From assembly GCF_023217965.1 (NCBI RefSeq), contig NZ_JALPSC010000001.1, positions 1,116,001 through 1,180,000 on the forward strand: DNA of 64,000 nt, in the 5' to 3' direction. This DNA is from Prevotella sp. E13-27. Lineage in GTDB: Bacteria; Bacteroidota; Bacteroidia; Bacteroidales; Bacteroidaceae. Made by a program: the position numbers and the translations under genes. Shown here piece by piece: positions 13,523-38,045 of the stretch (position 1 is the stretch's first letter; each line of letters begins with the position of its first letter). Below the pieces are notes generated by a model. The model saw only the letters and a list, made by a program, of their open reading frames with translations. It was not told the origin of the DNA and made no database searches.

Positions 13523-13578
13523 ATTGTTTTGGTTATTGGAGTTATTCATTAATGATTATTGTGAAGGAACCCTCGTTT

Positions 13579-16290: not shown

Positions 16291-16358
16291 TTTGTTGTTT
16301 CTTTCGATGTTTCGATATTTCGTTTTATCGTTATAACGTTTTAACGATTAAACGATAA

Positions 16359-19325
16359 TTATTCTTTATTAGTCTCTTTCAATTGTCTCTCGGCCCTGTC
16401 AATCATGTCGAGTGTGCCGCTGCCGTTGCTGACATAGCGGATTACCATTCCAGCAAAGTCCACGGCCTCTGCTGTGGCTGCATTGCTGCGATAGTCGGGT
16501 TGCTTTTTTGTCTTGTCGAGCAGCTGCATCAGCTCTTGCATGTCCTCCAGTTCGGCGAGGTTGCCTGGACGCATATTGTTTATAACAGCATTCAGCTGAC
16601 CGGCAGTCTTGTCAATCTCTTCCTGTGAATACTCTCCTTCAGCAGCATTTAGCACCGTCTGTGCTTTGACGGTCTGCTCTAAAAGTCTGGCGAAACCATG
16701 TTTTGCCCATGGTGCATATTCAGGCACTTTAACTGTCATGGCGTTCCATGCCTTCTGCTCGTCACTGCGCTTTTTGGCTATGAGGAGTAACTCATACAAC
16801 TGTGAACGATCGATATTGGCGGCAGCACTTCCTAAAGCACTGATGGCTGCAGGGTCTGCAGGTATGTTCATGCGGAAGTAATGGGTGGTGTGTTCATCGC
16901 TGGCATAGTCGGGGAAGAACATGCGTCCGTTCCATTCCATTGTGTAGAGATTGGCATCATAGCCCTTGCCTTGTTTTGCTCCATTAAGTGTCACGTCGCT
17001 CAGGTCGGGTTTTACGTTGATGGTTGCCTCGTCCCAGTTGTTAATTCCTGTGGTGGCCATCACCAGTGGTCCATACATGAAAGCACCAGTCCACATCGGG
17101 GTGTATTCTGTTTTGCCATCAGGTTCATATGCAGGTGCAGTCTCCATCTTGTCGGGTCCGAAGTCCAAGTGTTTGGTAAATGGCATCACTACCTCGATGA
17201 CATCTTTATCTTTCCATTTGCGTGCAGGAATCTCCACGTAGCTTGACGGCTGATAGTGTTTGGCGATGCTTTTACCGTTTAGCTTCACGTCAAAGCCATC
17301 GGTAGCCCAATAAGGAACACGGAGCTTGACTATAATCTTGGAGTTCTGATTATTCTGAACAATCTTTATCTTGCTCTTCTCGGCCGGCCACTCGCACTCC
17401 TGTTTGATGGTCACACCCTGTGCAGCCCAATGAGCTGTTGTAGGCATATATAGAGTCACCCATAACGTTGGGGTCTCCCCTTCCTCGGAGGGGCTTGGGG
17501 AAGTAAAATAAGCTGCCTCCTGATATTTTACATGGTTTTCCACACCAGTGCCGCCACAGCAGGTAGCCTGCGGTGTCTCGTTGCCCCAAGGCTTTGAAGC
17601 GTTGAGTCCTACAGCATACTGATAGACCGTCTGATAGCGTCGGGGGTTCACCGAACCGACAATCTGGTTGTAGAGCACCCGTTCATAGTAGTCCATGTAG
17701 CGTGCATCATCGGGGTTGAAACCGTTAAGGTCTTTTGTCAGCTTCGCCAGGTTATAGGCACAGCAAGTCTCGTTGATGGTCGATTCCGGCGTGATGTGTC
17801 CGCCCCATGTGCTGACATTGTTTGCCATCGATGTAATCTGTGAATAAGGCTGACGGAACATCTCGCCGTTGCCCACACCACCCATGGCATAGCGGTAGCG
17901 ACCTTGAATCATTGTCCAGAAGTTCTCTGCGAGGTTGTAATAGTAGGGATTGTTGTTACCACGGAAAGCACGCAGAGCTCCCGTCACCATCGGTATGTGC
18001 TGGTTGGCATGTCGTGTGCGGATAGCATCTATATTTTTTGCCAAAGGGTCGAAGAAGGCTGGGCTGTCGAAGTAGGTGGCGGCCTCCAGCAGACGGGTGC
18101 GCTCTTCCTTCGTGCCAGTCATCTCCGACAGACGTGCCAGCGACTCAGCCATACCGCCCACTTCACCGGCAATGTACATGTTCCACATCTCATAACGGTT
18201 ACCCGGTTTCTCACGTCGTTCTCCCTGGTTTCCGTCGCTCTTTACGAATGTGCGGTAGTGCAGTCTGTTCCAAACCCACAGCCCCATGTCTTTAGCTATT
18301 AGCAGCGCCTTCTCTGCTGTAGCCTTATCATCGATATAAGTAGCAATGTCGATGAGGCCTGCCAGCTGCTTATGCACGGAATAATAAGGTGCCCACACCC
18401 AGTCTTCATTGTTATAGGCACGATACATCTCTATCAGTGCGCAGTGCTGTGCGGGTATAGCGTTAAGATAGCCGTAGCCATAGAGTTCCGGATGCTGCTT
18501 GTAGCGGTTGAAGTCTGCCCATGTGCCTTTCATCTGGCGTAGCTCCTCCTCTGGTGCGAAGTCACGAGCCTCCCAATAGCGACCCAGCTTGTCGTTCCAT
18601 ACGAAGGTCTTCTCCTGACAGTGGCGCAGTTCGTTCACCATCTCCGTGATGTTCCTTTTCAGGATATCTTTCTTCTTCTGGTCCTGACAGCTGGCGAAGG
18701 CAAATGCCATGGCACTCATGTAGTGACCTGAGCCGTGACCTTTCAGCTTCGTCGTGGGTGAGTCCCATCCGTCGGCCTCAGGATAGCCGTCGGTAGAGAA
18801 ACCATAGGTGTCGCGATAGTTATAGAGTTGCTGTTTCACCGGCAGGCTTATAAGCTGGTCGATGTCGAGGTCGCGGTTCCACGTCAGACGGTTATCGCCG
18901 TTCAGACTAACGCTGTTCAATGGCAGAGTCTCTGCCTTGGGCATGTTTGATGGCACCTTGAAGCTTCCGTTTGTTACAGTCACCTTTGCAGATACAGGGT
19001 AGCCATTAGGCGTGCTGTTGTCACCAATGATAAAACCGCGAACGTTATAGCTCTTGCCTACTGGATTCATCTCAGGGTTGGCCTCAGCCTGTTCGGTGGC
19101 TTCCCATGAGTTAACCCATTTCACCTGTCTGTATTCTCCCTTGCCGTCGTTGTATTCCACCCATAGCTGATAGGGCAGTCGGGGGGCATTACCCACAGGC
19201 ACCTCCACGTTCACCTTCTCCACACTCTTCACTGTGTGGTCATCTTTGGCCATAGCTGTGGCCATCAGTCCTGAGGTGAGAAAGGCGATAAGGATCAGTT
19301 TCTTCATAAGTGTAGTTATTTTCAT
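16359..19325 (-). CDS. DUF1680 glycosidase, GH146/GH127-type, with Big_4 domain
   Basis: 988 residues; ATG 19307 (MKKLILIAFLTSGLMATAMA) is an alternative start with a cleaner signal peptide. A group-4 Ig-like domain (about 35-125) precedes a large DUF1680 alpha-helical domain with NETCCAYNLAKLTKDL and ATCCGGTGVENHVKYQEA, the paired-cysteine motifs of the GH127/GH146 beta-L-arabinofuranosidases. C-terminal beta and helical regions follow. A palindromic GC-rich repeat (17472-17505) encodes the extra stretch SPSPSEEGETP just after the second cysteine motif. First gene of the operon with GH97 and GH127. The precise GH family needs a profile search. Confidence 0.87.
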   Translation of the reverse strand: MKITTLMKKLILIAFLTSGLMATAMAKDDHTVKSVEKVNVEVPVGNAPRLPYQLWVEYNDGKGEYRQVKWVNSWEATEQAEANPEMNPVGKSYNVRGFIIGDNSTPNGYPVSAKVTVTNGSFKVPSNMPKAETLPLNSVSLNGDNRLTWNRDLDIDQLISLPVKQQLYNYRDTYGFSTDGYPEADGWDSPTTKLKGHGSGHYMSAMAFAFASCQDQKKKDILKRNITEMVNELRHCQEKTFVWNDKLGRYWEARDFAPEEELRQMKGTWADFNRYKQHPELYGYGYLNAIPAQHCALIEMYRAYNNEDWVWAPYYSVHKQLAGLIDIATYIDDKATAEKALLIAKDMGLWVWNRLHYRTFVKSDGNQGERREKPGNRYEMWNMYIAGEVGGMAESLARLSEMTGTKEERTRLLEAATYFDSPAFFDPLAKNIDAIRTRHANQHIPMVTGALRAFRGNNNPYYYNLAENFWTMIQGRYRYAMGGVGNGEMFRQPYSQITSMANNVSTWGGHITPESTINETCCAYNLAKLTKDLNGFNPDDARYMDYYERVLYNQIVGSVNPRRYQTVYQYAVGLNASKPWGNETPQATCCGGTGVENHVKYQEAAYFTSPSPSEEGETPTLWVTLYMPTTAHWAAQGVTIKQECEWPAEKSKIKIVQNNQNSKIIVKLRVPYWATDGFDVKLNGKSIAKHYQPSSYVEIPARKWKDKDVIEVVMPFTKHLDFGPDKMETAPAYEPDGKTEYTPMWTGAFMYGPLVMATTGINNWDEATINVKPDLSDVTLNGAKQGKGYDANLYTMEWNGRMFFPDYASDEHTTHYFRMNIPADPAAISALGSAAANIDRSQLYELLLIAKKRSDEQKAWNAMTVKVPEYAPWAKHGFARLLEQTVKAQTVLNAAEGEYSQEEIDKTAGQLNAVINNMRPGNLAELEDMQELMQLLDKTKKQPDYRSNAATAEAVDFAGMVIRYVSNGSGTLDMIDRAERQLKETNKE
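17472..17505. repeat. GC-rich palindromic element inside the DUF1680 gene
   Basis: GGTCTCCCCTTCCTCGGAGG followed by GGCTTGGGGAAG, with CCCCT/AGGGG arms. It is the same pattern as at 5694-5731 (read on the other strand) and 25034-25067 (other strand), and is in frame within the host gene. Confidence 0.75.
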
Positions 19326-19339
19326 TTTTTTCTGTGTGC

Positions 19340-19347
19340 AAATGTAG
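19340..19347 (-). promoter_or_regulatory. -7 box of the GH146/GH97/GH127 operon
   Basis: TACATTTG on the minus strand, 14 bases from the start codon at 19325. No good -33 TTTG is found at the usual distance, as expected for an activator-dependent promoter. The two-part repeat at 19375-19405 is directly behind it. Confidence 0.55.
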
Positions 19348-19374: not shown

Positions 19375-19405
19375 ACCGTCTAAACAACTCGTAAAATCGT
19401 CTAAA
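19375..19405 (+). promoter_or_regulatory. Two-part direct repeat, candidate operator (copy 1)
   Basis: ACCGTCTAAA (19375-19384) and ATCGTCTAAA (19396-19405), 21 bases apart start to start, in the 191-bp region between the divergent GH146 and CotH operons. The same pair with the same period is at 29905-29935. A two-turn direct repeat is what AraC-type DNA-binding domains of hybrid two-component systems are expected to recognise. Confidence 0.65.
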
Positions 19406-19484
19406 TCGACACGTTTTTCACTATTTGTGGACGATATTTTCAAAAACTAAGACTTTCGTTTTATTCAATATGGTATAAAATATG

Positions 19485-19492
19485 TATTTTTG
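19485..19492 (+). promoter_or_regulatory. -7 box of the CotH/DUF6055/GH43 operon
   Basis: TATTTTTG, 24 bases before the CotH start. The -33 region (around 19461) is only T-rich with no clear TTTG, again fitting an activated promoter. Confidence 0.5.
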
Positions 19493-19516
19493 CAATCGAA
19501 ATAAAAATGCTACACC

Positions 19517-21433
19517 ATGCGTTGGGACTTTCTTTATCAATTAAAAACCTTTATCTTAGCCATTTGCATGGCACTTATTTCCGCTGTGCAATCTTTCTCT
19601 CAGGATTTCTCACGAATCTACACCCATCAGCAGGGCACCACATGGTGTCAGCCGCTGGTGACCACTAATACTGACAATATTACTGGTAGTAGTGACCGTA
19701 AGCAGTTGTTGTTCAATATGACTGACGGCATGACCGTTCCCTTCGATATTGCTTCTATTGACAGCGTCGTCTTTTCCGATGCCATTGCAGATGAGTTGGA
19801 GTCGAAGAACCATTACAAAGTATTCCAGCTGTTTGTCAATACCGCCGATGGCACCGACATCACATCGCGTGAAGAGTATAAGCAGTGCTATATGTCGCTT
19901 AATGCCGATGGAGCCTATGCCGACTTCTCTGCATCAGCCCAGATTCGTGGCCGTGGTAACAGTTCTTTTCTTTGGTATGATAAGAAGCCGTTGCGCCTGA
20001 AGCTCGACAGCAAGCACAAGATGCTGGGTGTGGCGAAGGCAAAGAATTGGGTGTTGCTGGCTAACTACCGTGATGTCACCGATCTTATGAACACGTTTGT
20101 CTTCGAGATGGGACGCGCCCTTGGACTGCCTTTCACTAACAACACGCGTTATGTAGAGCTGTTTGTCAATGGCGACTACCGAGGCATCTATCAGCTAACT
20201 GAGCAGATACAGCAGAACAAGAACCGTGTGGCTGTCAGCGATGAGCGCGGCATATTGCTATCGCTTGATGTTGACGACGGTCCCGGCGAGAATCCTAATT
20301 CTGACGACAATTTCTGGAGTGAGGTCTATCAGATGCCTTGCTGCGTGAAATATCCCGATGATGAGGCATTCACAGCAAACACCGTTGACAGCGTGCGCAC
20401 CGTCTTTGCCGAACTCGAACAAGCCATCAAGTCTAAGAACTACGCTGTGGTGGAACAGTTGCTCGACATTCCCTCGTTCATCAAGTATCTTCAGATTCAG
20501 GAGTTTATATATAATGTAGAGCTCTCCGCTCCCCGTTCCATATATCTCCATAAAGATGGCGACGGCAAGTGGGTGATGGGTCCGTTGTGGGACTTCGATG
20601 CCGGCTATGACTTCGACTGGAGCACGATGACCACAGGACATAACTATTTCTCTCGTTTCGACGAGACGGTCATGGGTAGTAATCCCTACAAGCGCAATGG
20701 CAACTACAACTATGTGCCACAGTTCTTTACCGACCTCTTCGGATGTAAAGAGTTTGTTGAGCAGTATAAGGCGCAGTGGGCAGCCTGCAAGGACACTATC
20801 GTTACTCATGCCTGGGCAGAGTGTATGAAGTATGTCGAAGAGATGCGCTCCTCTGGTGCTATAGACCGTGAGTTCAAACGCTGGCCAATTGCCGGTAAGA
20901 CGTTCGATACCGAGGTGGAGAAGATGCACGAGTGGCTGAAGAACCGTCTTGTCCACATGAACTATCTCATTGCTGCTATCCCTGAACCTGCTGATGTTGT
21001 TCCCACAACCAATGAGAAGCTATGCGGCACCATTAAGACCAGTGTTGATATGAACTGGTTCAGCGGCTTCTCTCAGGCAAATAAGGTGACGGTCAACAAG
21101 CAGCGAGTGGCTCATCTCATGGGTATCAATGCCAATCAGTTGCAGGATTCTGAACTGTCTATCGTACCGCTTAACAGCGACGGCTCCGAGGGGCAGAACC
21201 ATACCAACGGCACCTTTGGCGGATGGTTCGATGAAGACGGCAATCCCGGTTATTTCGTTGACGGCCATGTATATATTGAGGTGTTCGAAGATTTGTGGAA
21301 ATGGTCGTGCGGTCTCTATCAGTACAACTGCTACGACGACAGCCACACCGTTACTATGCAGTATCAGTATTCCTACGAAGGCACGCTGCTTAAGGTTAAC
21401 ATCGAAGTAAATGTAAACATTAAAATGCAATAA
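19517..21433 (+). CDS. CotH-kinase-family secreted protein with DUF4859 domain
   Basis: 638 residues with an N-terminal export signal (about 10-28). After a short beta region with the motif IASIDSVVFSD comes a CotH-like domain (about 105-480): IRGRGNSSFLWYDKKPLRLKL, LLANYRDVTDLMNTFVFEMG, YVELFVNGDYRGIYQLTEQI and GPLWDFDAGYDF. The C-terminal 125 residues look like a DUF4859 domain, also seen in the 27322-29772 protein. CotH proteins are atypical protein kinases in spore formers; in Bacteroidetes they occur with extracellular carbohydrate systems and their target is unknown. First of three genes; the next starts 2 bases after its stop. Confidence 0.88.
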   Translation: MRWDFLYQLKTFILAICMALISAVQSFSQDFSRIYTHQQGTTWCQPLVTTNTDNITGSSDRKQLLFNMTDGMTVPFDIASIDSVVFSDAIADELESKNHYKVFQLFVNTADGTDITSREEYKQCYMSLNADGAYADFSASAQIRGRGNSSFLWYDKKPLRLKLDSKHKMLGVAKAKNWVLLANYRDVTDLMNTFVFEMGRALGLPFTNNTRYVELFVNGDYRGIYQLTEQIQQNKNRVAVSDERGILLSLDVDDGPGENPNSDDNFWSEVYQMPCCVKYPDDEAFTANTVDSVRTVFAELEQAIKSKNYAVVEQLLDIPSFIKYLQIQEFIYNVELSAPRSIYLHKDGDGKWVMGPLWDFDAGYDFDWSTMTTGHNYFSRFDETVMGSNPYKRNGNYNYVPQFFTDLFGCKEFVEQYKAQWAACKDTIVTHAWAECMKYVEEMRSSGAIDREFKRWPIAGKTFDTEVEKMHEWLKNRLVHMNYLIAAIPEPADVVPTTNEKLCGTIKTSVDMNWFSGFSQANKVTVNKQRVAHLMGINANQLQDSELSIVPLNSDGSEGQNHTNGTFGGWFDEDGNPGYFVDGHVYIEVFEDLWKWSCGLYQYNCYDDSHTVTMQYQYSYEGTLLKVNIEVNVNIKMQ

Positions 21434-21435
21434 CA

Positions 21436-23625
21436 ATGAAAAAGCTATTTACCCTTGTGATGCTTCTCTGCTCATTTGCAGTGAGCACCTTTGCACAGAA
21501 GACCGTGTACATCCCCAACGAGTGGCGCAACCCATGGCCAAGCGACTCGCTGCTCTATGCTGAGAGCGACCCCGAAGGCAAGTACACCTGGTCGAAGACA
21601 CGCTCTATGGAGAGCGACAACGTCATCCTCTTCTGGGACAAGTACTACACCAAGAACCCAAAAGAACTGTCTAAGAGCGACTTCTACTATGTCGATATGG
21701 ACTATCTGCTGAGCCAGTGTGAAGAGTACTACCAGTTGGAGAGCACCCGACTGGGCTTCGTGGATCCTGAGACATCCAATGTGAAGAAATACAAGATCAT
21801 GGTGCTTATGAACCACACCCAAACGTGGACATGCTACGGTGGCGGCTACGACTTCATGGTGCCCGCGTTGTGGCTGAACCCTTCAACATGTAAGCCCGTA
21901 GGCTCTGCTGTTGCTCATGAGGTAGGCCACTCGTTCCACTATATGTGTTTCGCTGAGCATAGCGGTCACAAGGACTCTGACAGCGACAACACCGGCTTCC
22001 ACCTCTCTAATGGCAACGGACAGACCATTTGGGAGACAACAGCCAACTGGCAATCGCTCCATAGTTTCCCTCAGGAGTTCTTCGACATGAGTTATATGTC
22101 GTCGATTTACAACCGCAGCCATAACTACGCTTTCTCCCACGAGTGGCATCGCTATCAGGCTTTCCCGTTCCTCACCTATCTTTGTGAGAAATACAACGAC
22201 ATCACCACCGTGGCACAGGTGTGGAACACCCCTATGACGGGTCAGAGCCGTGGCAAGGGCTCCGACTTCAATCAGGCTCTGATGAAATGTAAGAATTTGT
22301 CTGTCAGCGACATCTACAAGCTCCACTTCGACTTCGCATGCCATGCCGTGACATGGGACATGGAGTTCTGCAAGCCCTATCGTCAGTCTTATCACATCGG
22401 TAACTATGTCTATCGTTGTGTGCTCAACGATAACGACGAATATCAAGTGGCACTGGCCAGCTGTCCACAGAGCACAGGCTATAATGTCATTCCTCTACAG
22501 ACACCTGCTGTTGGCACAGAGGTGAAGGTCAACCTCACCGGTCTGGCTCCCGGAGCTGAACTCCTTGACATCGACCCAGGCGAATATCTCAATGGCGAGT
22601 CAAACTATGTGAAGCTCGAAGCTGACGCAAACGGTAAGCGCTGCTATCAGACAGCTAAGGCTGGCAGCCCCGCATGGCGCGGCTTCCGCATGGGCTATGT
22701 TGCACTGATGGCCGACGGCACTACTCAGTATTTCTCTGAAGACAAGATCTATTGTCAGGGACGTGGTGTGAAGACCGAGTCTTATGCTATGACCGTTCCC
22801 GAGGGTGTGAGCCGTCTGTGGCTCGTCGTTGCTCCAGCCCTCACTAATTATATCACTCACCGCTGGGACGATAAGATTGCCGATGATGACATGTGGCCCT
22901 ACAGCTTCACACTTGAAGGCACCGACCTCGGCACTGATGCCACCATCTATGCCGCTCCAACGCTCGATGGTCGCGATGTAGCCGACATCACTTTTACCTA
23001 TGATGTCACCTTCCCTGCCGATGCCAGCAACTACAGCGGCACCACCTTCTCTGTCAACGGTCGTCCAGGAGCTGCTCTCGGCACCGCTTTCCAGTATGAC
23101 ATGTCCAAGCTCACCAGTAAGATGCAGGCGTGGGACGAGCGTGGACCTCAGACAGGAAAGATAATGTTCTATGCCCTTACCCCCAATGGCGAACTGGCAA
23201 GCAGCGGCTCTACCGCCAACGGCTATGGTCACTGGTTCAGTGCTGGCGGCAATGTCACTTCCTATGGCTCCGGCTATATCTTCTCAGAGTTCGTTCCTTC
23301 ACTACTTGCGTTTACCATCGGTCAGAAACCTGGCGCCTGCAGGACTGGTGACAAATACACCATCCGTCAGGCACTGCGCTATCAGTCGAAGCGAAACAAG
23401 TTCAACAACGCCACTTTCATCTTCAATGTCACCATTGGCGGTACTACCGGCTCGGCAACACTGCGTTCAATGGATTATACCGACCCGAGAATTCAGGGCG
23501 TCAGCACACTCTCAACAGCAGGCAACGGTGAGACTCCCACCATCTATAACATCAAGGGACAGCGTCTGATTGCTCCTCAGCAGGGGCTGAACATCATCAA
23601 TGGACAGAAATTTCTCGTAAGATAA
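21436..23625 (+). CDS. DUF6055 metalloprotease-like secreted protein (copy 1)
   Basis: 729 residues with signal peptide (MKKLFTLVMLLCSFAVSTFA). The N-terminal half is a DUF6055-type domain with AVAHEVGHSFHY (His161, Glu162, His165), a gluzincin-type HExGH site. A beta-rich region with a DUF4859-like part follows (about 510-690). A short type-IX-secretion-like tail closes it (IYNIKGQRLIAPQQGLNIIN). Two other members of this family lie at 46803 and 54723. Proteolysis is inferred from the motif only. Middle gene between CotH and GH43. Confidence 0.82.
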   Translation: MKKLFTLVMLLCSFAVSTFAQKTVYIPNEWRNPWPSDSLLYAESDPEGKYTWSKTRSMESDNVILFWDKYYTKNPKELSKSDFYYVDMDYLLSQCEEYYQLESTRLGFVDPETSNVKKYKIMVLMNHTQTWTCYGGGYDFMVPALWLNPSTCKPVGSAVAHEVGHSFHYMCFAEHSGHKDSDSDNTGFHLSNGNGQTIWETTANWQSLHSFPQEFFDMSYMSSIYNRSHNYAFSHEWHRYQAFPFLTYLCEKYNDITTVAQVWNTPMTGQSRGKGSDFNQALMKCKNLSVSDIYKLHFDFACHAVTWDMEFCKPYRQSYHIGNYVYRCVLNDNDEYQVALASCPQSTGYNVIPLQTPAVGTEVKVNLTGLAPGAELLDIDPGEYLNGESNYVKLEADANGKRCYQTAKAGSPAWRGFRMGYVALMADGTTQYFSEDKIYCQGRGVKTESYAMTVPEGVSRLWLVVAPALTNYITHRWDDKIADDDMWPYSFTLEGTDLGTDATIYAAPTLDGRDVADITFTYDVTFPADASNYSGTTFSVNGRPGAALGTAFQYDMSKLTSKMQAWDERGPQTGKIMFYALTPNGELASSGSTANGYGHWFSAGGNVTSYGSGYIFSEFVPSLLAFTIGQKPGACRTGDKYTIRQALRYQSKRNKFNNATFIFNVTIGGTTGSATLRSMDYTDPRIQGVSTLSTAGNGETPTIYNIKGQRLIAPQQGLNIINGQKFLVR

Positions 23626-23701
23626 GTTTATAGGTTAATAGATATCACGCCATTTTTATTAGAGAAAAGTTAGTAATAAGAATATCAAGGTAGTCTGTAT
23701 C

Positions 23702-26575
23702 ATGAGAAACCATTTTCTTTGTTCGCTGCTGTTATGTGCCGTTCTGTCAGTACAGATGCAGGCAGCTGATAACGATAGCCCGCGCTGGAATACTCCTGGT
23801 GCGGGCAATCCGTTTATACCCGGCTATTTCGCCGACCCGACAATCCGTAAGTTCACCGTCAACGACGCTAATGGTAAGCCTCGCGACGTATTTTTCCTAT
23901 ATGCTACTACTGACGGTACTGGCAACGGCTACGGACCGGCACAGGTATGGGCCTCCTACGACTTCCGTAACTGGCAGAACATAGTAATGAACTGGCCTGT
24001 GACGGAAGTGGTGTGGGCACCCGATGTAGTACAACAGCCTGACGGCTCCTTCCGTTACTACTACTGTCGTCCCTGCGAGGTTATAGTAGGCGAGAGCAAG
24101 TCGCCTATCGGACCTTGGCGCAACATCTTGGGTACAAAGCCCGATGCCGTGTTTGTGCCCGACCGCTTTGTCCACAACGCCATCACCCTTGACCCACAGT
24201 TGTTTCGCGACGATGACGGCCAAGAGTATCTCTACTTCTGCACTTGGGGCATCTACAAGGACTTCGGCTGTGGCGTTGCGAAGGTCAACGGCAAGACACT
24301 GGGTGAGAAGAAACTCATACTCAATACCGAGCTGAAGGACATCTTTGAGGCTCCATACGTATTCAAGCGTAACGGCATTTATTATTTTACTTATAGCAGC
24401 GGATCCTGTCACGATGACACCTACCGCGTACAGTATGCCACATCAAAGGTGGGACCGATGGGTCCCTTCGAATATAAGGGCTGCATACTCAAGACCAATG
24501 CCGACCAGACCGTCCATGGTCCCGGCCACCACAGCATCTTGAAGGAGGGTGACCGCTACTACATTGTCTATCACCGCCACAATCTCCCTCGCTCTGTACA
24601 TGGCTTCAACCGTCAGGTATGCATTGACGAGATGAAGTTCGATGCCGAAGGTAACATCCTACCGATTGAGCCAACCCATACTGGTCTTAGTTTAAACTCT
24701 CCACTAGAAAGGGACCTTTCTTTCGGTGCCAAGGTCACTGCCTCTTCTTATTACGACGAGTGGTTCAAACCCGAATATGCTGTCGATGACAACAATGCAA
24801 CGCTATGGAAAGCCCGCGGCACCAACTGGGGACAGGGCGGTCGTGGCGGTAAGCCCGAGTGGTTGCAGATAGACCTTGGCAAGAAGCATACATTTACCGA
24901 GATTTGGACTCAGTTTGAATATCCCACCTTCTTCTATCAGTATAAGATAGAGACCTCGCTCGATGATAAGCAGTGGACGCTCTTCTCCGACCGCACACAG
25001 AACACCACGCAGGGTTCGCCGATGATTGATTACCTCCCCCTAACCCCCTCCGAAGGAGTGGGGACTGGTAAGACAAAGAAGCGTAATGTGAAGGCCCGAT
25101 ATATCCGCATCACGATTACTGACACGCAGAAGAACGGTCATATTCCCGCCATTTGGAACGTAAGGGTATGGAAGGAGGCACCTGAGCTCCCTTATAGCGA
25201 GGAGACAGCTCGTGGCAACGCTTCTTATCCAGGTATGCACAAAAAAGATGTGGAGACCGAGGAGCGAATGAACGCCCATCGTGCCGCTTATCTGCTTAAC
25301 ATAAGTGATGCCGCTCGTCATGAGATGTCTCCTTTCGATGTGGACCATCTCACCACGCCTGCTGGCATCACCTTCCACGCAAACAAGTCACTTCGTGCCC
25401 GCATCAAGGACGGACGCTGGGCGCTGTTCTTCAATGGTTCGCAACATCTCAGCAGCGACCAGCCATTGTCGCGTCTCTATAGCTATAACGCGGCTTATAC
25501 CATCAGCCTCTGGGCATTGCAGACAGAGCCTGACGCTGTAGAGACCGTAGTCTCATTGTCATCGTCGCGTGCCGACCTTGCCACCACGGAGCTGCGTCTT
25601 GGCACCGATCCGCGCACAGGTCTTGTCAACCATAACGGCTCCTTCGAGAGCTATGGTGCGCCTGAGACTGTCAGAAGCGCTGTCGGTCAGTGGCACCATT
25701 GGTTGCTCACCTTCGATGGTTGGATGGAGCGCGTCTATCGTGATGGTGAGCTCGTTCACGAGCAGAACAACTTCATAATGGTTCGTCCCGAGGGCAGGAT
25801 AACCATCGGTGGCGATGCCGACGGAGCCAACCATTTTAAGGGCTATATAAGCGAAGTGCGCATACTGCCTCGTGCTACAACAGCCGAGGAAGCGAAAGAG
25901 AACTTCGAGCGTAGTAAGGACGCCTCACTGCCTTCGCTCGGCGATGACGACTTCGACGAGAGCGATCCTGACAGTCGCTTCACGCTCTCTCCCACGATGA
26001 AGAAGGTGTTTAGTCAGGATGAGGCTCGCCTCTCTGCCCAGACCGCCGACTTCAATAATGACCCGCTCCACAATGGCGCAACAATCCTCAAGGAGGTTGA
26101 GGGCGACTTCGTCCTCATGGCCCACCTCTCTGACATGGAGGGCCTCCAGACCCATAGCGTCAAAGGCTACAACGAAGCAGGCATCTTCTTAAGAGAAGAG
26201 TTGGCTACCGCTACAGATTCTGTTCAGGCATCCAATGCTGTAGCAAACTCTAAACTCTCCACTCTAAACTCTCCACTAATCCATCTCGGAGTCTTCCCTC
26301 TCTACAATTGTGGTAACATGCTAACGGTTCTATCTCCACAGGGCCGTCCGCAGTTCCCTAATTCCAAGGGCTACGACTTCGACCCAATACTGCAGTTTGA
26401 GCGACGCGGCAACCAACTCTTCGCCCGCACCAGTCGTGATGGCGTGAAGTGGACCAACATGCCCGGTTCGCCCATCGAGGTGAGCAGCAAGAAGCTGTCG
26501 CTCGGCATTTATCAGACCACCTATACTCCCACCACGTCGTGGGCCATACTCAAAGATATCGTTATCTATCAATAA
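23702..26575 (+). CDS. GH43 glycosidase with discoidin and LamG modules
   Basis: 957 residues, exported. The five-bladed GH43 domain (about 30-330) shows the three expected acids: Asp45 in FADPTI, Asp164 in LDPQLFRDDDG and Glu216 in IFEAPYVFKRNG. An F5/8 type C (discoidin) module (about 340-495) and a LamG/concanavalin-like module (about 545-735) follow, then a beta domain with the DUF1349-like end SLGIYQTTYTPTTSWAILKD. Substrates in GH43 are mostly alpha-L-arabinofuranosides or beta-xylosides; the locus favours arabinose. Two repeat insertions (25034-25067 and 26244-26278) are in frame within linkers. Last gene of its operon. Confidence 0.9.
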   Translation: MRNHFLCSLLLCAVLSVQMQAADNDSPRWNTPGAGNPFIPGYFADPTIRKFTVNDANGKPRDVFFLYATTDGTGNGYGPAQVWASYDFRNWQNIVMNWPVTEVVWAPDVVQQPDGSFRYYYCRPCEVIVGESKSPIGPWRNILGTKPDAVFVPDRFVHNAITLDPQLFRDDDGQEYLYFCTWGIYKDFGCGVAKVNGKTLGEKKLILNTELKDIFEAPYVFKRNGIYYFTYSSGSCHDDTYRVQYATSKVGPMGPFEYKGCILKTNADQTVHGPGHHSILKEGDRYYIVYHRHNLPRSVHGFNRQVCIDEMKFDAEGNILPIEPTHTGLSLNSPLERDLSFGAKVTASSYYDEWFKPEYAVDDNNATLWKARGTNWGQGGRGGKPEWLQIDLGKKHTFTEIWTQFEYPTFFYQYKIETSLDDKQWTLFSDRTQNTTQGSPMIDYLPLTPSEGVGTGKTKKRNVKARYIRITITDTQKNGHIPAIWNVRVWKEAPELPYSEETARGNASYPGMHKKDVETEERMNAHRAAYLLNISDAARHEMSPFDVDHLTTPAGITFHANKSLRARIKDGRWALFFNGSQHLSSDQPLSRLYSYNAAYTISLWALQTEPDAVETVVSLSSSRADLATTELRLGTDPRTGLVNHNGSFESYGAPETVRSAVGQWHHWLLTFDGWMERVYRDGELVHEQNNFIMVRPEGRITIGGDADGANHFKGYISEVRILPRATTAEEAKENFERSKDASLPSLGDDDFDESDPDSRFTLSPTMKKVFSQDEARLSAQTADFNNDPLHNGATILKEVEGDFVLMAHLSDMEGLQTHSVKGYNEAGIFLREELATATDSVQASNAVANSKLSTLNSPLIHLGVFPLYNCGNMLTVLSPQGRPQFPNSKGYDFDPILQFERRGNQLFARTSRDGVKWTNMPGSPIEVSSKKLSLGIYQTTYTPTTSWAILKDIVIYQ
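25034..25067. repeat. GC-rich palindromic element inside GH43
   Basis: CTCCCCCTAACCCCCTCCGA followed by AGGAGTGGGGACT, translated as LPLTPSEGVGTG in a loop of the discoidin module. The reverse complement aligns with the elements in prmC and in the 16359-19325 gene. Confidence 0.75.
26244..26278. repeat. ACTCTCCACTCTAA-type repeat inside GH43
   Basis: Two copies of CTCTAAACTCTCCACT in tandem, translated as SKLSTLNSPL in a linker. A single copy, AACTCTCCACT, occurs earlier in the same gene near 24698. Confidence 0.75.
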
Positions 26576-26856
26576 TTCAAGTTTCGGATGTAAACAACTT
26601 GTTGTCTGTCAAGTAATTCTTGATCAATAAAAAACACATCCGAAAGTTCAGTCAGATAAGTTTTCCACTAATTCCGTTACCCTTTCAGGTATCTAATCTC
26701 TTTAATGGCAAAAACATAAAAAATAATCTTAACGATAACTGTTTCAAGTTTTTGTCAAACAACAAACACTGGGAGGGATTACTGTTTAGACTGAATTGTA
26801 ACATAGTGGAAACAAAGTTGCGATGTGGTTTTGACTGTACTATCTTACAAAGTCGA

Positions 26857-26933
26857 CGACTTTGATGACCAAACTCGTCGACTTTGGTCACCAAACTCGT
26901 CGACTTTGGTCACCAAACTCGTCGAGTTTGGTT
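26857..26933. repeat. 22-bp tandem array with TTTGGTCACCAAA palindromes
   Basis: Three 22-bp units (26857-26878, 26879-26900, 26901-26922) and a partial fourth, each containing the palindrome TTTGGTCACCAAA (first copy slightly diverged) joined by CTCGTCGA. They lie in the 746-bp gap between convergent operons. The flanking 26576-26856 and 26934-27095 sequence is AT-rich, with only short unconvincing open frames and no other recognisable signal. Confidence 0.85.
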
Positions 26934-27095
26934 TTCAGCTTACTCAGAACTGGATTACAAAACTTCTAGTAGCGGATTACAAGATAGACAGAACTACTCA
27001 GCTTCGGAAGTTGAAATTACTCAACTTTCGCATATATAAAAATCTTTTCCGCACCAGTGAATTACTATTTTGTGTAACTACAAAAAATAGCCGCT

Positions 27096-27185
27096 CTATT
27101 GGAAAAAACTAAAAATCCAATAGGGAAATTATTTTTTCCCAATAGGGAAATTAAAATCGGGGTATTTTTCATGTCATTCCAATAG
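27096..27185. repeat. CCAATAGGGAAATTA repeats and inverted copies
   Basis: CTATTGG (27096-27102) pairs with CCAATAG (27117-27123). CCAATAGGGAAATTA recurs at 27139-27153 and CCAATAG again near 27179. These can form alternative hairpins next to the terminator. Function unclear. Confidence 0.65.
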
Positions 27186-27192
27186 AAAAAGG

Positions 27193-27238
27193 AAAAAGCC
27201 ATTTCCAAACTCATTTTCGAGTTAAGAAATGGCTTTTT
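27193..27238. terminator. Bidirectional terminator between convergent operons
   Basis: AAAAAGCCATTTC (27193-27205) is perfectly complementary to GAAATGGCTTTTT (27226-27238). The A-run/T-run ends make it a Rho-independent terminator in both directions, suited to the converging 23702-26575 and 27322-29772 genes. Confidence 0.9.
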
Positions 27239-27321
27239 CTTTGCTTTTAGAGGGTATTCAACTTACAGATTGAAAGTTGTTATGTTGTGAATTTGCATTT
27301 TAACACACCCTCGTGGGTCTT

Positions 27322-29772
27322 TTATTTCACCATCTTCTTTCCATCGATGATGTAGAGACCACGCTGAGCGTTTACTACGCGGCGACCCTGCAGGTCATAG
27401 ATTGCACCATCAGTTTTTGCAGTATTCACTGTAGCGATGCCAGTCTCATAGACCTGTGGTGAAACGAACTTCACAGCATATACATACTGGCGGTTGTTCA
27501 CCTCGAAGCAGAACTGAGCGTCAACGCTGAAGTCTTCAGCAACAGCATTGTTGGCACCAACATTGATGACTTGTTTTGTACCATCTTCATCAATATAGAT
27601 GTAGATGTCGCCATAGCCGTCGTAACCGCCGTCAAGACCGAAGGCGAGTCCGGTAGTGCAGTTCTGACCCTCGCCGTAAGCGCCGTCCTTCATGCCGCGG
27701 AGGTAGTAGTTGTCGCTGTTGAGCAGGTCGGCAACAGTGACAGGAGCAGCCTCGGTGCTGAGTGCAGTAGCAGCCTTTGAAAGGTCTATCTCGAAGCCAG
27801 CTTCATTGGTGCTTACAGGCAGAACGATGTTCTCTGTGCCAACTACTTCCTTCTGTTCGAGTGTCTCCACGAAGCTAATCTGGAACTTGAAGGTGATCAT
27901 CTTCTCAGTCTCTTCGTTCACGAGGAACAGTGTGCTCTTGAATACATCGCCCACGGCAGGCTGGCTAGGCATCTGACAACCACGGAACTTACCATCGGCA
28001 TATACGATTCCCATGTAGCAGCTGTTGCCCCATGTGGTGCGGAAGCCTTCCTTAGACAGCCAGAAGCCAGGCTTCGGGTCGCAGCTCCACTTCTTGGTGT
28101 ACTGACCTTCAACGGCAGCGATTGAATCGACGTTCAAACCATAAAGCACAGGGCTGGCCGTGCCGATGAGGGCCTCGAGGTCTTCGCCGCTGATGGTGCC
28201 GAGATCGTTCATCGTAAAGTTGTTGTCGAGCAGCTGCTGCAAAATGAAGTTACGTGTAGCAACGCTCTCGAAGTTGTATTCTTTCTTCTCAGCCTCTGCG
28301 ATAGTGATGTGGAGGTTGTACTGGTAGTAGTTCTGACCACCGATGAAATAGAGGGTGATGTTACCTTCGTCGCCCACCTTCAGGTGGTCAGGAAAATGGC
28401 CGAGGTTCAGTGTGCCATACTTGCTGGTCTCTGCAGGCTCAATGAAGAAGTCGGCATTGTCGCCCCATGAAGTCACATCGCCATTTCTTGTGAACCACCA
28501 GCCACCATTATTGGCTGTAGAGCTGGCGAAATTATCCTTGTCGTCAAGGGCAACGAGCTGGAGTGTAGAAGTTTCAACGCCTAACAGGGCGGCTATAGAA
28601 TCGACATTTACTGTGATAGCGTCAGAGGAGTAGTCTTCGCGTGGCTCCTGTTTCCATTCCTTTGTCTCCTCGCCTACCTTTGTGTAGTCGGCCATACCGT
28701 TACCGGCTTCCACTTCCTCGATGTTAACGTTAACCTTTAGCTTATAGGCTTTCTCGCCATAGAGGAAATAGAGGCTTGCAAAAAGCTTCTCGCCACCCTT
28801 CAGTGTACCGGGATACTGACCTAAGCTAGCTGTTAGTGTGTCGGTTGCTACGTCAAACTTAATACTTTCAATATAGAAGCAGTCATTATTGTTGTAACCT
28901 GTAGCAGATACTTCACCAGTTAGATCACCGTCTTCGTTCTTGATTTGGCGGAACCACCAGCTGGGAGCTTCGCCGGCAGTACTCTTGTTGGTCAGAGAGT
29001 CCTTCTTCAAACCAGCGTTGTCACCGTCAGTGATATACTGAGTGGTGTACAGAATGGCATCCAAATTCTCGGCATCGGTCAGCACTTCGGTGTTGGTGAT
29101 ACCCAGCAGGTTAGCCAGACCTTCGAGCTTCACAGCAATGATGTCTGGATCATAGCCGGTGCGAGGCTTCTGTGTGACGGTGAGCTCAGTCTCACCCACG
29201 AAGCTTGTCAGCTCGCTCTCCAAGATCGTCTTAGGAGCAAGAATCTCTACCTCGGGCTTAGCAATGACGTTGAGAGTCAGAGCGAATGTTGCCTCCTTGC
29301 TGTTGAACTTCAACTTCAGGGTAGCAGTAGCTGTTTCACCGCCCTGCATCTTCTCTGGCATCTGACCAACATAAAAAGCGAAGACATCGCCTTCCACATC
29401 AGGACTTGCAAAGAACTTTGCGTTGTCGCCCCAGCCAACAGGGTTACCTGTAGCGTCCATCCAGAAGCCGTGGTTGTCGGCCTCAGTAGCAGCAGTCCAA
29501 GCCACATCCTGGCCATCTACCACAGAATAGAGCAGAATGGGATCGGGGGTTTCAGCATTGATGTAAGCGCGGATGGCCGGAGCCAGCGTTGCGGTGTCAG
29601 TGCCAAGTGCCGTAGCTACTTCTGTTAAGTTGAACTCGTAGGCAATAGCCTCATAACCCTTTGTGGGATACTGCTCATGAGCCAGACTGAACTGTGCCTG
29701 TGCGCTCACGCCTGTAAACAGACATGCTGCCGCAACGAGCACTTTTCTTAAATAAGTAGAAAGTCTTAACAT
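27322..29772 (-). CDS. Secreted five-repeat DUF4859 protein with secretion tail
   Basis: 816 residues, exported (signal peptide ending about ACLFTGVSAQA). The chain is about five tandem domains of some 130-150 residues, each with the pattern of a V-D-S-I-A-A-L-type helix, a GWWF/GFW segment, a WGDNA/WGNS turn and a closing beta hairpin. These are best read as DUF4859 domains (about 35-175, 185-370, 375-500, 505-670, 675-790). The end IYDLQGRRVVNAQRGLYIID is a type-IX-like sorting tail. There are no catalytic motifs; it is probably a surface or released binding protein. Divergent from the main SusCD operon and next to the shared two-part repeat. Confidence 0.8.
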   Translation of the reverse strand: MLRLSTYLRKVLVAAACLFTGVSAQAQFSLAHEQYPTKGYEAIAYEFNLTEVATALGTDTATLAPAIRAYINAETPDPILLYSVVDGQDVAWTAATEADNHGFWMDATGNPVGWGDNAKFFASPDVEGDVFAFYVGQMPEKMQGGETATATLKLKFNSKEATFALTLNVIAKPEVEILAPKTILESELTSFVGETELTVTQKPRTGYDPDIIAVKLEGLANLLGITNTEVLTDAENLDAILYTTQYITDGDNAGLKKDSLTNKSTAGEAPSWWFRQIKNEDGDLTGEVSATGYNNNDCFYIESIKFDVATDTLTASLGQYPGTLKGGEKLFASLYFLYGEKAYKLKVNVNIEEVEAGNGMADYTKVGEETKEWKQEPREDYSSDAITVNVDSIAALLGVETSTLQLVALDDKDNFASSTANNGGWWFTRNGDVTSWGDNADFFIEPAETSKYGTLNLGHFPDHLKVGDEGNITLYFIGGQNYYQYNLHITIAEAEKKEYNFESVATRNFILQQLLDNNFTMNDLGTISGEDLEALIGTASPVLYGLNVDSIAAVEGQYTKKWSCDPKPGFWLSKEGFRTTWGNSCYMGIVYADGKFRGCQMPSQPAVGDVFKSTLFLVNEETEKMITFKFQISFVETLEQKEVVGTENIVLPVSTNEAGFEIDLSKAATALSTEAAPVTVADLLNSDNYYLRGMKDGAYGEGQNCTTGLAFGLDGGYDGYGDIYIYIDEDGTKQVINVGANNAVAEDFSVDAQFCFEVNNRQYVYAVKFVSPQVYETGIATVNTAKTDGAIYDLQGRRVVNAQRGLYIIDGKKMVK

Positions 29773-29849
29773 AAGAAAAATTAATTAGTTAGTGAATAAA
29801 ATAATTATAGGTTGTATTTAAAAATTTAGGTTGCGTTTTAAAACAGTGA

Positions 29850-29880
29850 CAAATGTAGGAAGATTATTTTTATCTTGCAA
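29850..29880 (-). promoter_or_regulatory. Promoter of the DUF4859 protein gene
   Basis: Minus strand: -33 TTG (29878-29880, context TCTTGC), 20-base spacer, -7 TACATTTG (29850-29857). About 78 bases of leader precede the ATG. Confidence 0.7.
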
Positions 29881-29904
29881 GAAAAACCACGTAAAACAGG
29901 CGCT

Positions 29905-29935
29905 TTTAGACGATTTTTTTATTCTTTTAGACGGT
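29905..29935 (-). promoter_or_regulatory. Two-part direct repeat, candidate operator (copy 2)
   Basis: Read on the minus strand: ACCGTCTAAA (29935-29926) and ATCGTCTAAA (29914-29905), 21-base period, identical in half-sites and spacing to copy 1 at 19375-19405, while the 11-base spacers differ. It lies between the divergent promoters of the DUF4859 gene and the SusCD operon, 54 bases from the latter's -33 element. Confidence 0.65.
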
Positions 29936-29989: not shown

Positions 29990-30021
29990 TTTGTTTGAAC
30001 TCTTTTTTTAACCTAACTTTG
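29990..30021 (+). promoter_or_regulatory. Promoter of the main SusC/SusD operon
   Basis: -33 TTTG (29990-29993), 20-base spacer, -7 TAACTTTG (30014-30021). Transcription would start near 30028, giving a leader of about 185 bases that contains the small open frame at 30045-30140. Confidence 0.75.
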
Positions 30022-30140: not shown

Positions 30141-30213
30141 CTTTCTGCAACAACTGTAGAGATTGCTTTCACGTGTGTATGTATATAATAATAAAGATAA
30201 AAACAAGAGAATT

Positions 30214-32850
30214 ATGAGGAAAATTAAGCACTACGGCTTAGTGATCGCGCTTAGTCTTACTTTGGGAGAGGTGGGGACGCTCACTTCCTGCTCGGAGAAA
30301 GACGAGCTGATGGACGAACCGTCGTGGCTGGGTAACAGCATCTACGACTGGCTGAAAGATCAGGGCAACTACAGCTACACCATGCGGCTTATTGATGACC
30401 TGGGACAGAAGCAGGTGCTCAGTCAGACGGGTTCGAAGACCCTCTTCGTGGCCAACGACGATGTCTATAACCAGTTCTTCCAGCAGAACGACTGGAAAGT
30501 GAGCGGCTATGATCAGCTGACCGATGCTCAGAAGAAACTGCTCTTCAACAGCAGTATGGTTAATAACGCCTACCTCATTGAGCTGCTCAGCAGCGTCAGT
30601 GGTCCGAAGCCGTTGAAGGGACAGTGTATGCGCCGTCCGACGGCAGCCTCTGTCTTCGACTCGGTGTCAACGATGAAACCGGCTGAGATGCCGCAGACGA
30701 TTTTCTGGAAGGAGCTGCGTGATGCCGGACAGCCAATCATTCTGCTGCGTGACAACACCACGAAGCCAATGATTCACTTCCTGCCAGTGTTCATGCAGAA
30801 CAATAAGATTACAGATGAGGACTTGGCTATTCTCACCAATGGCGTGTCAACATCGGCAAGTGACTCATGGGTGAACGGCAAGAAACTGACAGATATCGAC
30901 ATCACATGTAAGAACGGCTATATACACAAGGTTGACGGACTGCCTACAGCAGCCGACAACATGGCGGAGATAGTGCACAAGCACCAAAATATGTCGCGCT
31001 TTGCATCGTTGATGGATCGCTTCTCGGCTCCTTACTATGACGATGGCGCCACAAAGGAATATAATGCGCTGAACAATACTCAGGAGAAGGTTTATACGCT
31101 GAAATATTTCTCGCAGACAAGCAACACAAAAGAATATCCTGGCTCGGAAGGTGGGGCACTGGACAAAGACCCCAGCGGACAGACCGTTGAGGCAACGCTG
31201 GCCTTCGACCCGGGCTGGAACCAGTATATGTACATTAATACAGCCGGTCGCGACCTCCACTATGACTGTGGCGCTCTGCTCGTTCCCTCGAACGACGCAC
31301 TTGACTACTGGTGGAATCACGACGGAAAGGCATTGCAGGACATGTATGGATCTTGGGAGAACGTGCCTATGAACGTGCTCGTGAAGCTGCTTGACATCAA
31401 CTTCATACGCTCATTCATTGAGACCGTGCCATCAAAGTTCAAGAACATCCTGGACAACACGAACAAGGTACCAATCGGCATCACCCGTAATCATGTGGAC
31501 TCATGCTTCATGGGATGCAACGGTGTGGTCTATCTGCTGAATCGCGTGTTCACACCATCGGCCTACTCCAGTGTGTCGTTTCCTGCACTGGTCAACGAGA
31601 ACACGATGAAGGTTATATCGAAAGCTATAGAGAAACTGGAGTTTGAACCATATCTTAACTCTATGGACTCTTATTATAGCTTCATAATCCCGTCTAACAC
31701 CGCACTGCTCACCTATGTGGACCCCTGCACCTATGGCAGCACAACGAGTGTGCTCTATGAATTCTTCTGGGATGAACAGAAGAAGGCACTCGGTGCACAC
31801 CGCTTCCTCTACGACCTGGCCACAGAGACAAAGGTGGAAGGTGACCTCGCCGATGCTTCTGACGAACAGGTGAGAAACCGTCTCAATGATATTCTTGATA
31901 ACCTGATCATCGTTGACTCACTGAAGCCAGAGCAGAAATACTACCGCACAAAGGGTGGCAGCACACTGAAGATTGAGAATGTGGATAAGGAAGGCACGAT
32001 GACCGTCAGCGCCGGACTGCAGATAGAACAGGGCAAGAGCGTCACAGTGAACACCATCTATGACATGACCAAGACAGGTAATGGTAAGAGCTATGTCGTT
32101 GACAATATGCCACTCGGCAGCCGCAAGTCACTCTATGCCATGTTGAAGGAACAGAGCGACACGCTGTTCTATCACTTTTATGCCAAGGGTGACAGCGCCA
32201 ACACGCTCACCAAAAGCATGCTCGGAAAGAGCAGAGGCTGTCTGGACTATAACTGCTCGCTCTTCGACCGCTATGACTATACTGCCTATATGCCTACAGA
32301 TGCCAGCATCAAGCCATACGTAGATGCTGGTCTGCTGCCCACATGGAACGACTTTTATAAGGTGAAGGCAGAGCTGGAGGCAATGGAAGGCTTCAACGCC
32401 TCTACTGCCAAGGGAAGGACAAAGCGCTTCAAGGTGCTTGACATCATCTCGAGTCGCATCATGAACTTCGTGAAGTACCACATACAGGATAACTCTATCT
32501 ATGTGGGCGGAAAGCCTGTCAGCGGTGTGAAGTATGAGACATCGGCTCTTAACCCTACTAACAAACGCTTCTTCAGCGTCACCGTCACGGCAGATGCTAC
32601 ACAACTCACCATTGAGGACCAGTTGGGCAACAAGAGTCATGTAATCACTAGTGGCAGTCACAACCTAATGGGACGTGAGTACTGGATTGACAATCCTGGT
32701 AGCGACGGCTACGGTGAGAATATCTATAATGCCAGCGACGTGGTGCTCCACACCGTCGATGCTCCACTGTTCTTCGAAGACCTCAATAAGAAAGGAACAT
32801 GGAGAGCCGAGGTGGATGCAAAGATTGCAGAGCTGAAGGATCAAAATTAA
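30214..32850 (+). CDS. Fasciclin-domain surface lipoprotein (1)
   Basis: 878 residues from MRKIKHYGLVIAL; the ATG at 30163 would put a charged stretch before the signal peptide. Lipobox LTSC with Cys26. Fasciclin-like repeats are recognisable: WLKDQGNYSYTMRLIDDLGQ with TLFVANDDVYNQFF near the start, a second set around NENTMKVISKAIEKLEF with SFIIPSNTALLTY, and a further one around SLYAMLKEQSDTLFYHFYAK with TAYMPTDASI. Such lipoproteins accompany SusCD pairs in Prevotella and are thought to bind glycan at the surface. First gene of the nine-gene operon; SusC follows after 21 bases. Confidence 0.85.
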   Translation: MRKIKHYGLVIALSLTLGEVGTLTSCSEKDELMDEPSWLGNSIYDWLKDQGNYSYTMRLIDDLGQKQVLSQTGSKTLFVANDDVYNQFFQQNDWKVSGYDQLTDAQKKLLFNSSMVNNAYLIELLSSVSGPKPLKGQCMRRPTAASVFDSVSTMKPAEMPQTIFWKELRDAGQPIILLRDNTTKPMIHFLPVFMQNNKITDEDLAILTNGVSTSASDSWVNGKKLTDIDITCKNGYIHKVDGLPTAADNMAEIVHKHQNMSRFASLMDRFSAPYYDDGATKEYNALNNTQEKVYTLKYFSQTSNTKEYPGSEGGALDKDPSGQTVEATLAFDPGWNQYMYINTAGRDLHYDCGALLVPSNDALDYWWNHDGKALQDMYGSWENVPMNVLVKLLDINFIRSFIETVPSKFKNILDNTNKVPIGITRNHVDSCFMGCNGVVYLLNRVFTPSAYSSVSFPALVNENTMKVISKAIEKLEFEPYLNSMDSYYSFIIPSNTALLTYVDPCTYGSTTSVLYEFFWDEQKKALGAHRFLYDLATETKVEGDLADASDEQVRNRLNDILDNLIIVDSLKPEQKYYRTKGGSTLKIENVDKEGTMTVSAGLQIEQGKSVTVNTIYDMTKTGNGKSYVVDNMPLGSRKSLYAMLKEQSDTLFYHFYAKGDSANTLTKSMLGKSRGCLDYNCSLFDRYDYTAYMPTDASIKPYVDAGLLPTWNDFYKVKAELEAMEGFNASTAKGRTKRFKVLDIISSRIMNFVKYHIQDNSIYVGGKPVSGVKYETSALNPTNKRFFSVTVTADATQLTIEDQLGNKSHVITSGSHNLMGREYWIDNPGSDGYGENIYNASDVVLHTVDAPLFFEDLNKKGTWRAEVDAKIAELKDQN

Positions 32851-32871
32851 TTGATGGGAAAGGAACGCAAT

Positions 32872-36204: not shown

Positions 36205-36208
36205 TATA

Positions 36209-38016: not shown

Positions 38017-38045
38017 TAACCAGATATTTATCATTCGCAATTATT

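What the first reader, a model, noticed from the sequence alone, without database searches (positions are those of the whole stretch)
19375..29935. Shared 21-bp-period direct repeat upstream of four operons: probable binding site of the locus sensor
ACCGTCTAAA-N11-ATCGTCTAAA occurs at 19375-19405 (plus) and 29905-29935 (minus) with identical half-sites and spacing but unrelated 11-base spacers. Both lie between divergent promoters, so together they could serve the GH146/GH97/GH127 operon, the CotH/DUF6055/GH43 operon, the DUF4859 gene and the nine-gene SusCD operon. AraC-type domains bind direct half-sites two helical turns apart. A sensor with such a domain (48049-52029) is the last gene of the SusCD operon. 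Conservation only at the half-sites is what selection for binding predicts.
Basis: partly seen in the sequence, partly recalled or inferred. Interest (0 to 1): 0.78.

Follow-up and report, generated by a model that had tools for sequence, protein, structure and literature searches.

The report
Sugar-sensor binding sites with fixed spacing
Three short DNA sites in front of a gut bacterium's plant-sugar genes look like the docking places of the sugar sensor encoded beside them, and their fixed distance to the gene-start signal may be a rule shared by many such sensors.

Summary
Degenerate forms with the same 21-bp period recur upstream of homologous operons in relatives with an orthologous sensor: 36 of 51 genomes searched, against 10 of 50 congeners without one. 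The sensor at 48049-52029 is a hybrid two-component system (HTCS). HTCS motifs with about 21 bp between direct repeats are published for Bacteroides (PMC3878776, passages), so the kind is known.

Binding and induction are untested. Control of the DUF4859 gene is unresolved.

The parts
19375..19405 (-). Site A, read toward the GH146-like/GH97/GH127 operon: TTTAGACGAT-N11-TTTAGACGGT, ending 28 bp before TACATTTG
   Evidence: exact; PWM made without the window ranks it 2nd of 127,924 positions, 27.7 bits; distance
19426..19456 (+).
   Evidence: PWM rank 3rd of 127,924, 20.2 bits; next best 5.4; lowest leave-one-out training score 16.9; distance
29905..29935 (+). Site C, read toward the SusCD operon: TTTAGACGAT-N11-TTTAGACGGT, ending 78 bp before TAACTTTG; its other end is 47 bp from the DUF4859-side TACATTTG
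   Evidence: exact; PWM rank 1st, 44.7 bits; distances
19339..19346 (-). -7 box TACATTTG of the GH146-like operon
   Evidence: sequence; found 28 bp from site A
19485..19492 (+). -7 box TATTTTTG of the CotH operon
   Evidence: sequence; 28 bp from site B
29850..29857 (-). -7 box TACATTTG on the DUF4859 side
   Evidence: sequence
30014..30021 (+). -7 box TAACTTTG of the SusCD operon
   Evidence: sequence
48049..52029 (+). HTCS sensor-regulator, last of nine closely packed genes; proposed binder
   Evidence: Reg_prop, Y_Y_Y, HisKA, HATPase_c, Response_reg, HTH_18; SHIP motif at residue 1146
51688..52026 (+). HTH domain (residues 1214-1326)
   Evidence: 12 residues at least 95% conserved in 30 orthologs and under 40% in 26 paralogs
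11069..19325 (-). GH146-like, GH97, GH127 genes: proposed target of site A
   Evidence: Pfam; PDB relatives
19517..26575 (+). CotH, DUF6055/DUF4859, GH43 genes: proposed target of site B
   Evidence: Pfam
30163..52029 (+). Nine-gene run with two SusC/SusD-like pairs and the sensor: proposed target of site C
   Evidence: Pfam; first SusC by NCBIfam
27322..29772 (-). DUF4859 gene: control by site C unresolved
   Evidence: Pfam; no 28-bp site for it in 8 loci

Best explanation
The repeats are operators of the HTCS encoded at 48049-52029. Shown by sequence: each site is two direct AraC-type half-sites 21 bp apart (consensus in relatives, read toward the gene: TTTRGACGATWTTTNYATNNT TTTRGACGATWGTGNCA), found with sensor orthologs and usually placed 28 bp from the -7 box. 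Inferred: oligosaccharide binding in the periplasm leads to phosphorelay to the receiver, the freed HTH domains bind as a head-to-tail dimer just upstream of the -33 region and recruit RNA polymerase. Site A drives GH146-like/GH97/GH127, site B CotH/DUF6055/GH43, site C SusCD from about five turns further upstream. The sensor is the last gene of the SusCD run, so positive autoregulation is predicted.
For: Only two exact copies in the genome. Motif in 36 of 51 sensor-bearing genomes against 10 of 50 without a 1e-200 match; 33 of 55 tabulated hits, in 27 of 51 genomes, lie within 36 kb of the sensor. With the 28-bp promoter included, 39 of 51 against 6 of 50. TnnnTTTG at exactly 28 bp in 30 of 38 non-redundant relatives' sites. 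Species-wide scan with gap free between 18 and 42: 28 of 37 hits at 28 bp, all 28 in records titled as Bacteroidales groups, 26 of 28 with homologues of window genes in the fetched stretch. HTH domain conserved in 30 orthologs. Site C at 78 bp in six loci and 68 bp in two, with a 10-bp insertion and a 10-bp gap on its two sides in G065. Other HTCS loci show a 21-bp repeat at the same register. Direct repeats averaging 21 bp are published for HTCSs (PMC3878776, passages).
Against: No binding or expression data. 15 of 51 sensor-bearing genomes have no match at two mismatches and 12 of 51 none with the full grammar. Of the 22 tabulated hits away from the sensor, 12 lie beside homologous enzyme genes, 5 do not and 5 were not examined. 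Across 60 other HTCS loci, similarity of the HTH domain does not predict similarity of the site (Spearman 0.03); the locus with the most similar domain by identities (L234) scored -14.5. Site B has a poor proximal half. Site C breaks the 28-bp rule. The PWM comes from sites found with the window's motif, so the ranks of A and C are partly by construction.
Confidence: 0.85

Rival explanations
1. The sites are bound by another regulator, in particular the stand-alone AraC-type protein at 6473-7348.
For: It has an HTH_18 domain and lies on the same side of the window as the GH127 operon.
Against: In 20 other genomes with the sensor, its best homologue is 42-57% identical in 18, never close to the sensor (nearest 95 kb, G118), and at most about 33% identical in G404 (100% complete) and G321 (93%), which keep the site.
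Confidence: 0.05
2. One site serves both divergent promoters in each spacer.
For: Site C keeps 47-48 bp (or 57-58 bp) to the DUF4859-side box as well as 78 bp (or 68 bp) to the SusCD box, and both boxes are conserved.
Against: In the GH146/CotH spacer and in L151, L154, L160 and L162 each promoter has its own site at 28 bp facing it.
Confidence: 0.35
3. The sites are remnants of the genome's 7-bp tandem arrays with no function.
For: AGTCTAAA-type arrays match the core at two mismatches.
Against: Sites A and C lack the 7-bp period, are the only exact matches, keep a fixed distance to promoters, and stay recognisable where the surrounding spacer averages 58% column identity.
Confidence: 0.01

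Closest known systems
HTCS regulons of Bacteroides thetaiotaomicron (Ravcheev et al. 2013, PMC3878776; passages)
   Same: AraC-type HTCS; direct repeats averaging 21 bp between tandem sites; regulon of glycan enzymes and SusC/SusD genes.
   Different: Other half-site sequences and another genus. The passages read give no distance to the promoter. I could not see the supplementary alignments.
BT0366 arabinan HTCS (PMC5061871; passages)
   Same: A receiver plus HTH fragment shifted the BT0365 promoter and another region of its locus in gel shift; predicted sites and -7 boxes are marked in a supplementary figure.
   Different: No fixed register is stated in the passages; substrate and half-sites may differ.
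Inhibitory receiver-HTH arrangement of HTCSs, S/CHIP motif (PMC11253607; passages)
   Same: The window sensor has SHIP at residue 1146, so DNA binding may need phosphorylation.
   Different: The interface was not modelled here; the D/K partner residues were not checked.
PDB 12aw, titled hybrid two-component system protein (listing only)
   Same: Best sequence match to the receiver-HTH part (E 1.2e-52, residues 14-264 of 267).
   Different: Structure not examined; whether it holds DNA is unknown to me.
Sigma-ABfr promoters, TAnnTTTG (PMC7366714; passages)
   Same: All four window promoters carry TAnnTTTG.
   Different: The passages describe no operator register.

Membership tests
HTCS regulator | Periplasmic sensor, histidine kinase, receiver and AraC-type HTH in one chain | tested here: met
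   Pfam matches
HTCS regulator | Gene beside susC/susD-like genes | tested here: met
HTCS operator | Direct repeat with about 21 bp between half-sites | tested here: met
   histogram (24 of 31 pairs at 21 bp, but 20 of its 33 loci had been picked by a 21-bp hit)
HTCS operator | Conserved upstream of target operons in genomes with the orthologous regulator | tested here: met
   36 of 51 against 10 of 50; the exact core alone fails, 0 of 59 relatives
HTCS operator | Bound by the phosphorylated regulator | not testable with these tools
   needs gel shift or footprint
HTCS operator | Glycan-induced transcription of the operons | not testable with these tools
   needs expression data
Sigma-ABfr promoter | TAnnTTTG at -7 | tested here: met
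Sigma-ABfr promoter | TTTG near -33 | tested here: inconclusive
   TTTGTTTG lies before the SusCD box; no conserved TTTG column between site and -7 box in the relatives' 28-bp promoters
Operator of the AraC protein 6473-7348 | Regulator present and linked where the site is conserved | tested here: not met

The most novel reading that the evidence does not exclude
HTCS regulators in general act through one rigid promoter grammar: a 21-bp-period direct repeat of any half-site sequence ending 28 bp upstream of TAnnTTTG, with permitted slides by whole helical turns. If so, the operator and regulon of an HTCS could be read from a genome without knowing its motif.
Probability: 0.6. Interest if true: 0.72.

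Novelty: new member of a known kind. Interest (0 to 1): 0.6.

Why it matters
HTCSs are called the most abundant regulators of polysaccharide loci in B. thetaiotaomicron (PMC6874557, passage), yet the 2013 study could not predict motifs for 20 of its HTCSs (PMC3878776, passage). A fixed register between operator and -7 box would give a blind way to find operators, say which strand and promoter each site serves, and point to a fixed contact between the HTCS dimer and RNA polymerase. The one-turn slide in the SusCD spacer is a natural experiment in favour of a face-of-helix constraint. Hallella multisaccharivorax DSM 17128 (L191; Prevotellaceae), a named strain rather than a metagenome assembly, carries the 28-bp form.

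Tried and rejected
Exact core in relatives: own genome only, 1 of 60.

I first took the 79-bp distances on the far side of many sites as one site serving both promoters. In several relatives a second site facing the other way, with its own 28-bp distance, explains them; this led to site B.

Idea that site similarity scales with HTH-domain similarity across other HTCSs: not seen (Spearman 0.03, n = 60). One locus, L233 (second by identities), had the top score, 26.1, the only one above the lowest training score of 16.9.

AraC 6473-7348 as binder: rejected. A 28-bp site at the SusCD or DUF4859 promoter in 8 loci: none, all scores negative. A site upstream of the right-arm GH43/DUF6055/DUF2264 operon: none among the 25 best PWM positions listed.

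Rows dropped: loci L124, L128, L133 and the window were left out of the PWM set (50 sites; 42 rows; 38 after near-duplicates). Of 41 G201 hits only the one on the sensor contig entered; the 40 others were left out as tandem-repeat-like, although not every one has a clear 7-bp period.

Biases: most loci behind the PWM and 20 of 33 behind the spacing histogram were picked by a motif hit with 21-bp spacing. The control genomes are those without a 1e-200 sensor match; some are incomplete.

Full report
Observation. The two copies are exact and at the stated coordinates. In the 3.96 Mb genome the core with spacing has two exact matches; 13 more carry two mismatches, 11 of them beginning AGTCTAAA as in the genome's 7-bp tandem arrays. 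Both sites lie between divergent genes, each side with a TAnnTTTG box.

Sensor. 48049-52029 has propeller repeats, Y_Y_Y, HisKA, HATPase_c, receiver and HTH_18. It is the last of nine closely packed genes with two SusC/SusD-like pairs. Of 398 genus genomes, own included, 71 have a match at 1e-200. Most of the matches listed there are 43-60% identical, but the set also holds more distant HTCSs near 33-37% and forms that end before the HTH.

Conservation with the sensor. The exact core is in none of 59 relatives. As AYCGTCYAAA-N11-AYCGTCYAAA with up to two mismatches it is in 36 of 51 genomes that I chose for a sensor ortholog (own included) and in 10 of 50 congeners without a 1e-200 match. Of 55 tabulated hits, 33 lie within 36 kb of the sensor on its contig, in 27 of 51 genomes. 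Of the other 22, 12 lie beside GH127, GH97, CotH, DUF6055 or similar genes on other, often short contigs, 5 do not, and 5 were not examined. Fifteen of the 51 have no match; I did not resolve why. With the promoter included (repeat, 28 bp, TnnnTTTG, up to three mismatches) the counts are 39 of 51 against 6 of 50; in the own genome this finds site A and three tandem-array matches, not B or C.

Anatomy. In 38 non-redundant sites from relatives, read toward the gene, the consensus is TTTRGACGATWTTTNYATNNT TTTRGACGATWGTGNCA; GA and AT are nearly invariant in both halves, and spacer and trailing bases are partly conserved. Each unit is thus about 17 bp, as expected for a two-helix AraC-type domain (inference). 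Distances between same-strand half-sites with at most one mismatch in 33 loci (631 kb) were 21 bp 24 times, 22 bp four, 20 bp two and 38 bp once, but 20 of these loci had been picked by a 21-bp hit. In the loci picked by the sensor alone (L075-L086, L091), near-matches at 21 bp appear in six and one also has a 22-bp one (L076).

Register to the promoter. TnnnTTTG starts exactly 28 bp after the site in 30 of 38; the stricter TAnnTTTG does so in 15 of 38. Of the other eight, five are the DUF4859/SusCD spacer (78 or 68 bp), one has 29 bp and two show no such box. A scan of the species genomes with the gap free between 18 and 42 bp returned 37 hits; 28 have 28 bp. Those 28 are all in records titled as Bacteroidales groups, and 26 of 28 have homologues of window genes in the fetched stretch. 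The other nine fall once each at 21, 25, 29, 30, 31, 35, 36, 38 and 40 bp; five are in Myxococcota, Lachnospiraceae, Bdellovibrionales, Methylophaga and Geminicoccaceae.

Third site. A PWM built without the window puts 29905-29935, 19375-19405 and 19426-19456 first, second and third of 127,924 positions (44.7, 27.7, 20.2 bits); the next is 5.4, and the lowest leave-one-out training score is 16.9. The first two ranks are partly by construction, because the training sites were found with the window's motif. Site B ends 28 bp before the CotH -7 box, as site A does for the GH146-like operon. L151, L154, L160 and L162 show pairs of sites facing each other, each 28 bp from its own promoter.

Site C. 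Its orientation points to SusCD, with the -7 box at 78 bp. Window, G009, G344, G409, G404 and G087 have 78 bp there and 47-48 bp on the DUF4859 side; G065 and G321 have 68 and 57-58 bp. In the alignment of six of these, G065 has a 10-bp insertion before the site and a 10-bp gap after it. The site moved by one helical turn relative to both promoters, which suggests that register matters but not for which promoter. No 28-bp site was found for either in eight loci.

The binder. In 30 orthologs 12 residues of the HTH domain are at least 95% conserved and under 40% in 26 paralogs. At 60 other HTCS loci, looking only at positions with a -7 box 27-29 bp away, one (L233) scores above 16.9; domain and site similarity do not correlate. 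The window's AraC gene has no linked homologue in 20 other sensor-bearing genomes and no close homologue in two that keep the site.

Generality. Without any motif, 162 TAnnTTTG promoters near 40 other HTCS genes were scored for self-identity over 18 periods and 70 offsets; period 21 with offset 28 was first of 1,260 cells. In 58 promoters from 20 further loci it was eighth of 1,260 (z 2.8), where the top cell was period 31, offset 0. Combined (220) it was first, and in none of 500 rotations did period-21 identity reach the observed value. Half-sites there differ, for example TTGAGACTAT, TGAACGATTT, TGTAACATTT. The second set is small and neighbouring cells are correlated.

What is known. Direct repeats averaging 21 bp are published for Bacteroides HTCSs (PMC3878776, passages), as are binding of HTCS fragments to PUL promoters (PMC5061871; PMC11253607; passages) and the -7 consensus (PMC7366714, passages). 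A fixed 28-bp register did not come up in my searches (eight papers opened as passages only); these cover openly licensed papers, and I saw no supplementary file.

Function. PDB relatives are alpha-galactosidase-type GH97, GH127 beta-L-arabinofuranosidases and entry 5opj (that 5opj is a GH146 enzyme is recalled). The substrate may be a plant glycan with beta-L-arabinofuranosyl and alpha-galactosyl groups, perhaps of extensin type; this is inference. That the genus is Prevotella is inferred from equal contig lengths of G020:C35 and a record titled Prevotella sp. RUG108.

Verdict. The map of who is served needs correction, and the promoter register is the part worth following.

Noticed in passing
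own genome G000:C1:1366704-1370246 (L017, L087): An HTCS-like paralog, 45% identical to the window sensor over residues 2-1197, ends after the receiver (open frame 1203 aa) with no HTH and no HTH gene next to it in the ORFs listed. Eight relatives have matches that also stop near residue 1195-1212 (G311, G086, G153, G090, G169, G179, G023, G370), three of their frames unusually long or with an inner stop. A sensor line without its DNA-binding output?
   Followed up: partly
window about 2537-2652 and 3602-3750: Arrays of AGTCTAAA/AGTCTATA 7-bp units between genes; similar arrays at other places of the genome and in G201 and G083.
   Followed up: no
window 52026-60388 (-): GH43, hypothetical, DUF6055, DUF2264 and SNF-type transporter genes beside the sensor, with no operator among the 25 best PWM positions. 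Possibly under other control although it shares DUF6055 with the regulon.
   Followed up: partly
window 48047-48049: The sensor follows the DUF6055 gene by one base and so is probably co-transcribed with SusCD; a paper passage says HTCS regulators are typically constitutive and not induced (PMC6874557).
   Followed up: no
L173:1677-1750: In an uncultured Bacteroidetes record a repeat with GACGATTTAACAT units at 21 bp lies 38 bp, one turn beyond 28, from TnnnTTTGC; may belong to another HTCS.
   Followed up: no
window 9591-10994 and 7450-9804 (-): An ORF with only a HATPase_c match overlaps the start of a C10-peptidase ORF with BspA-type repeats.
   Followed up: no
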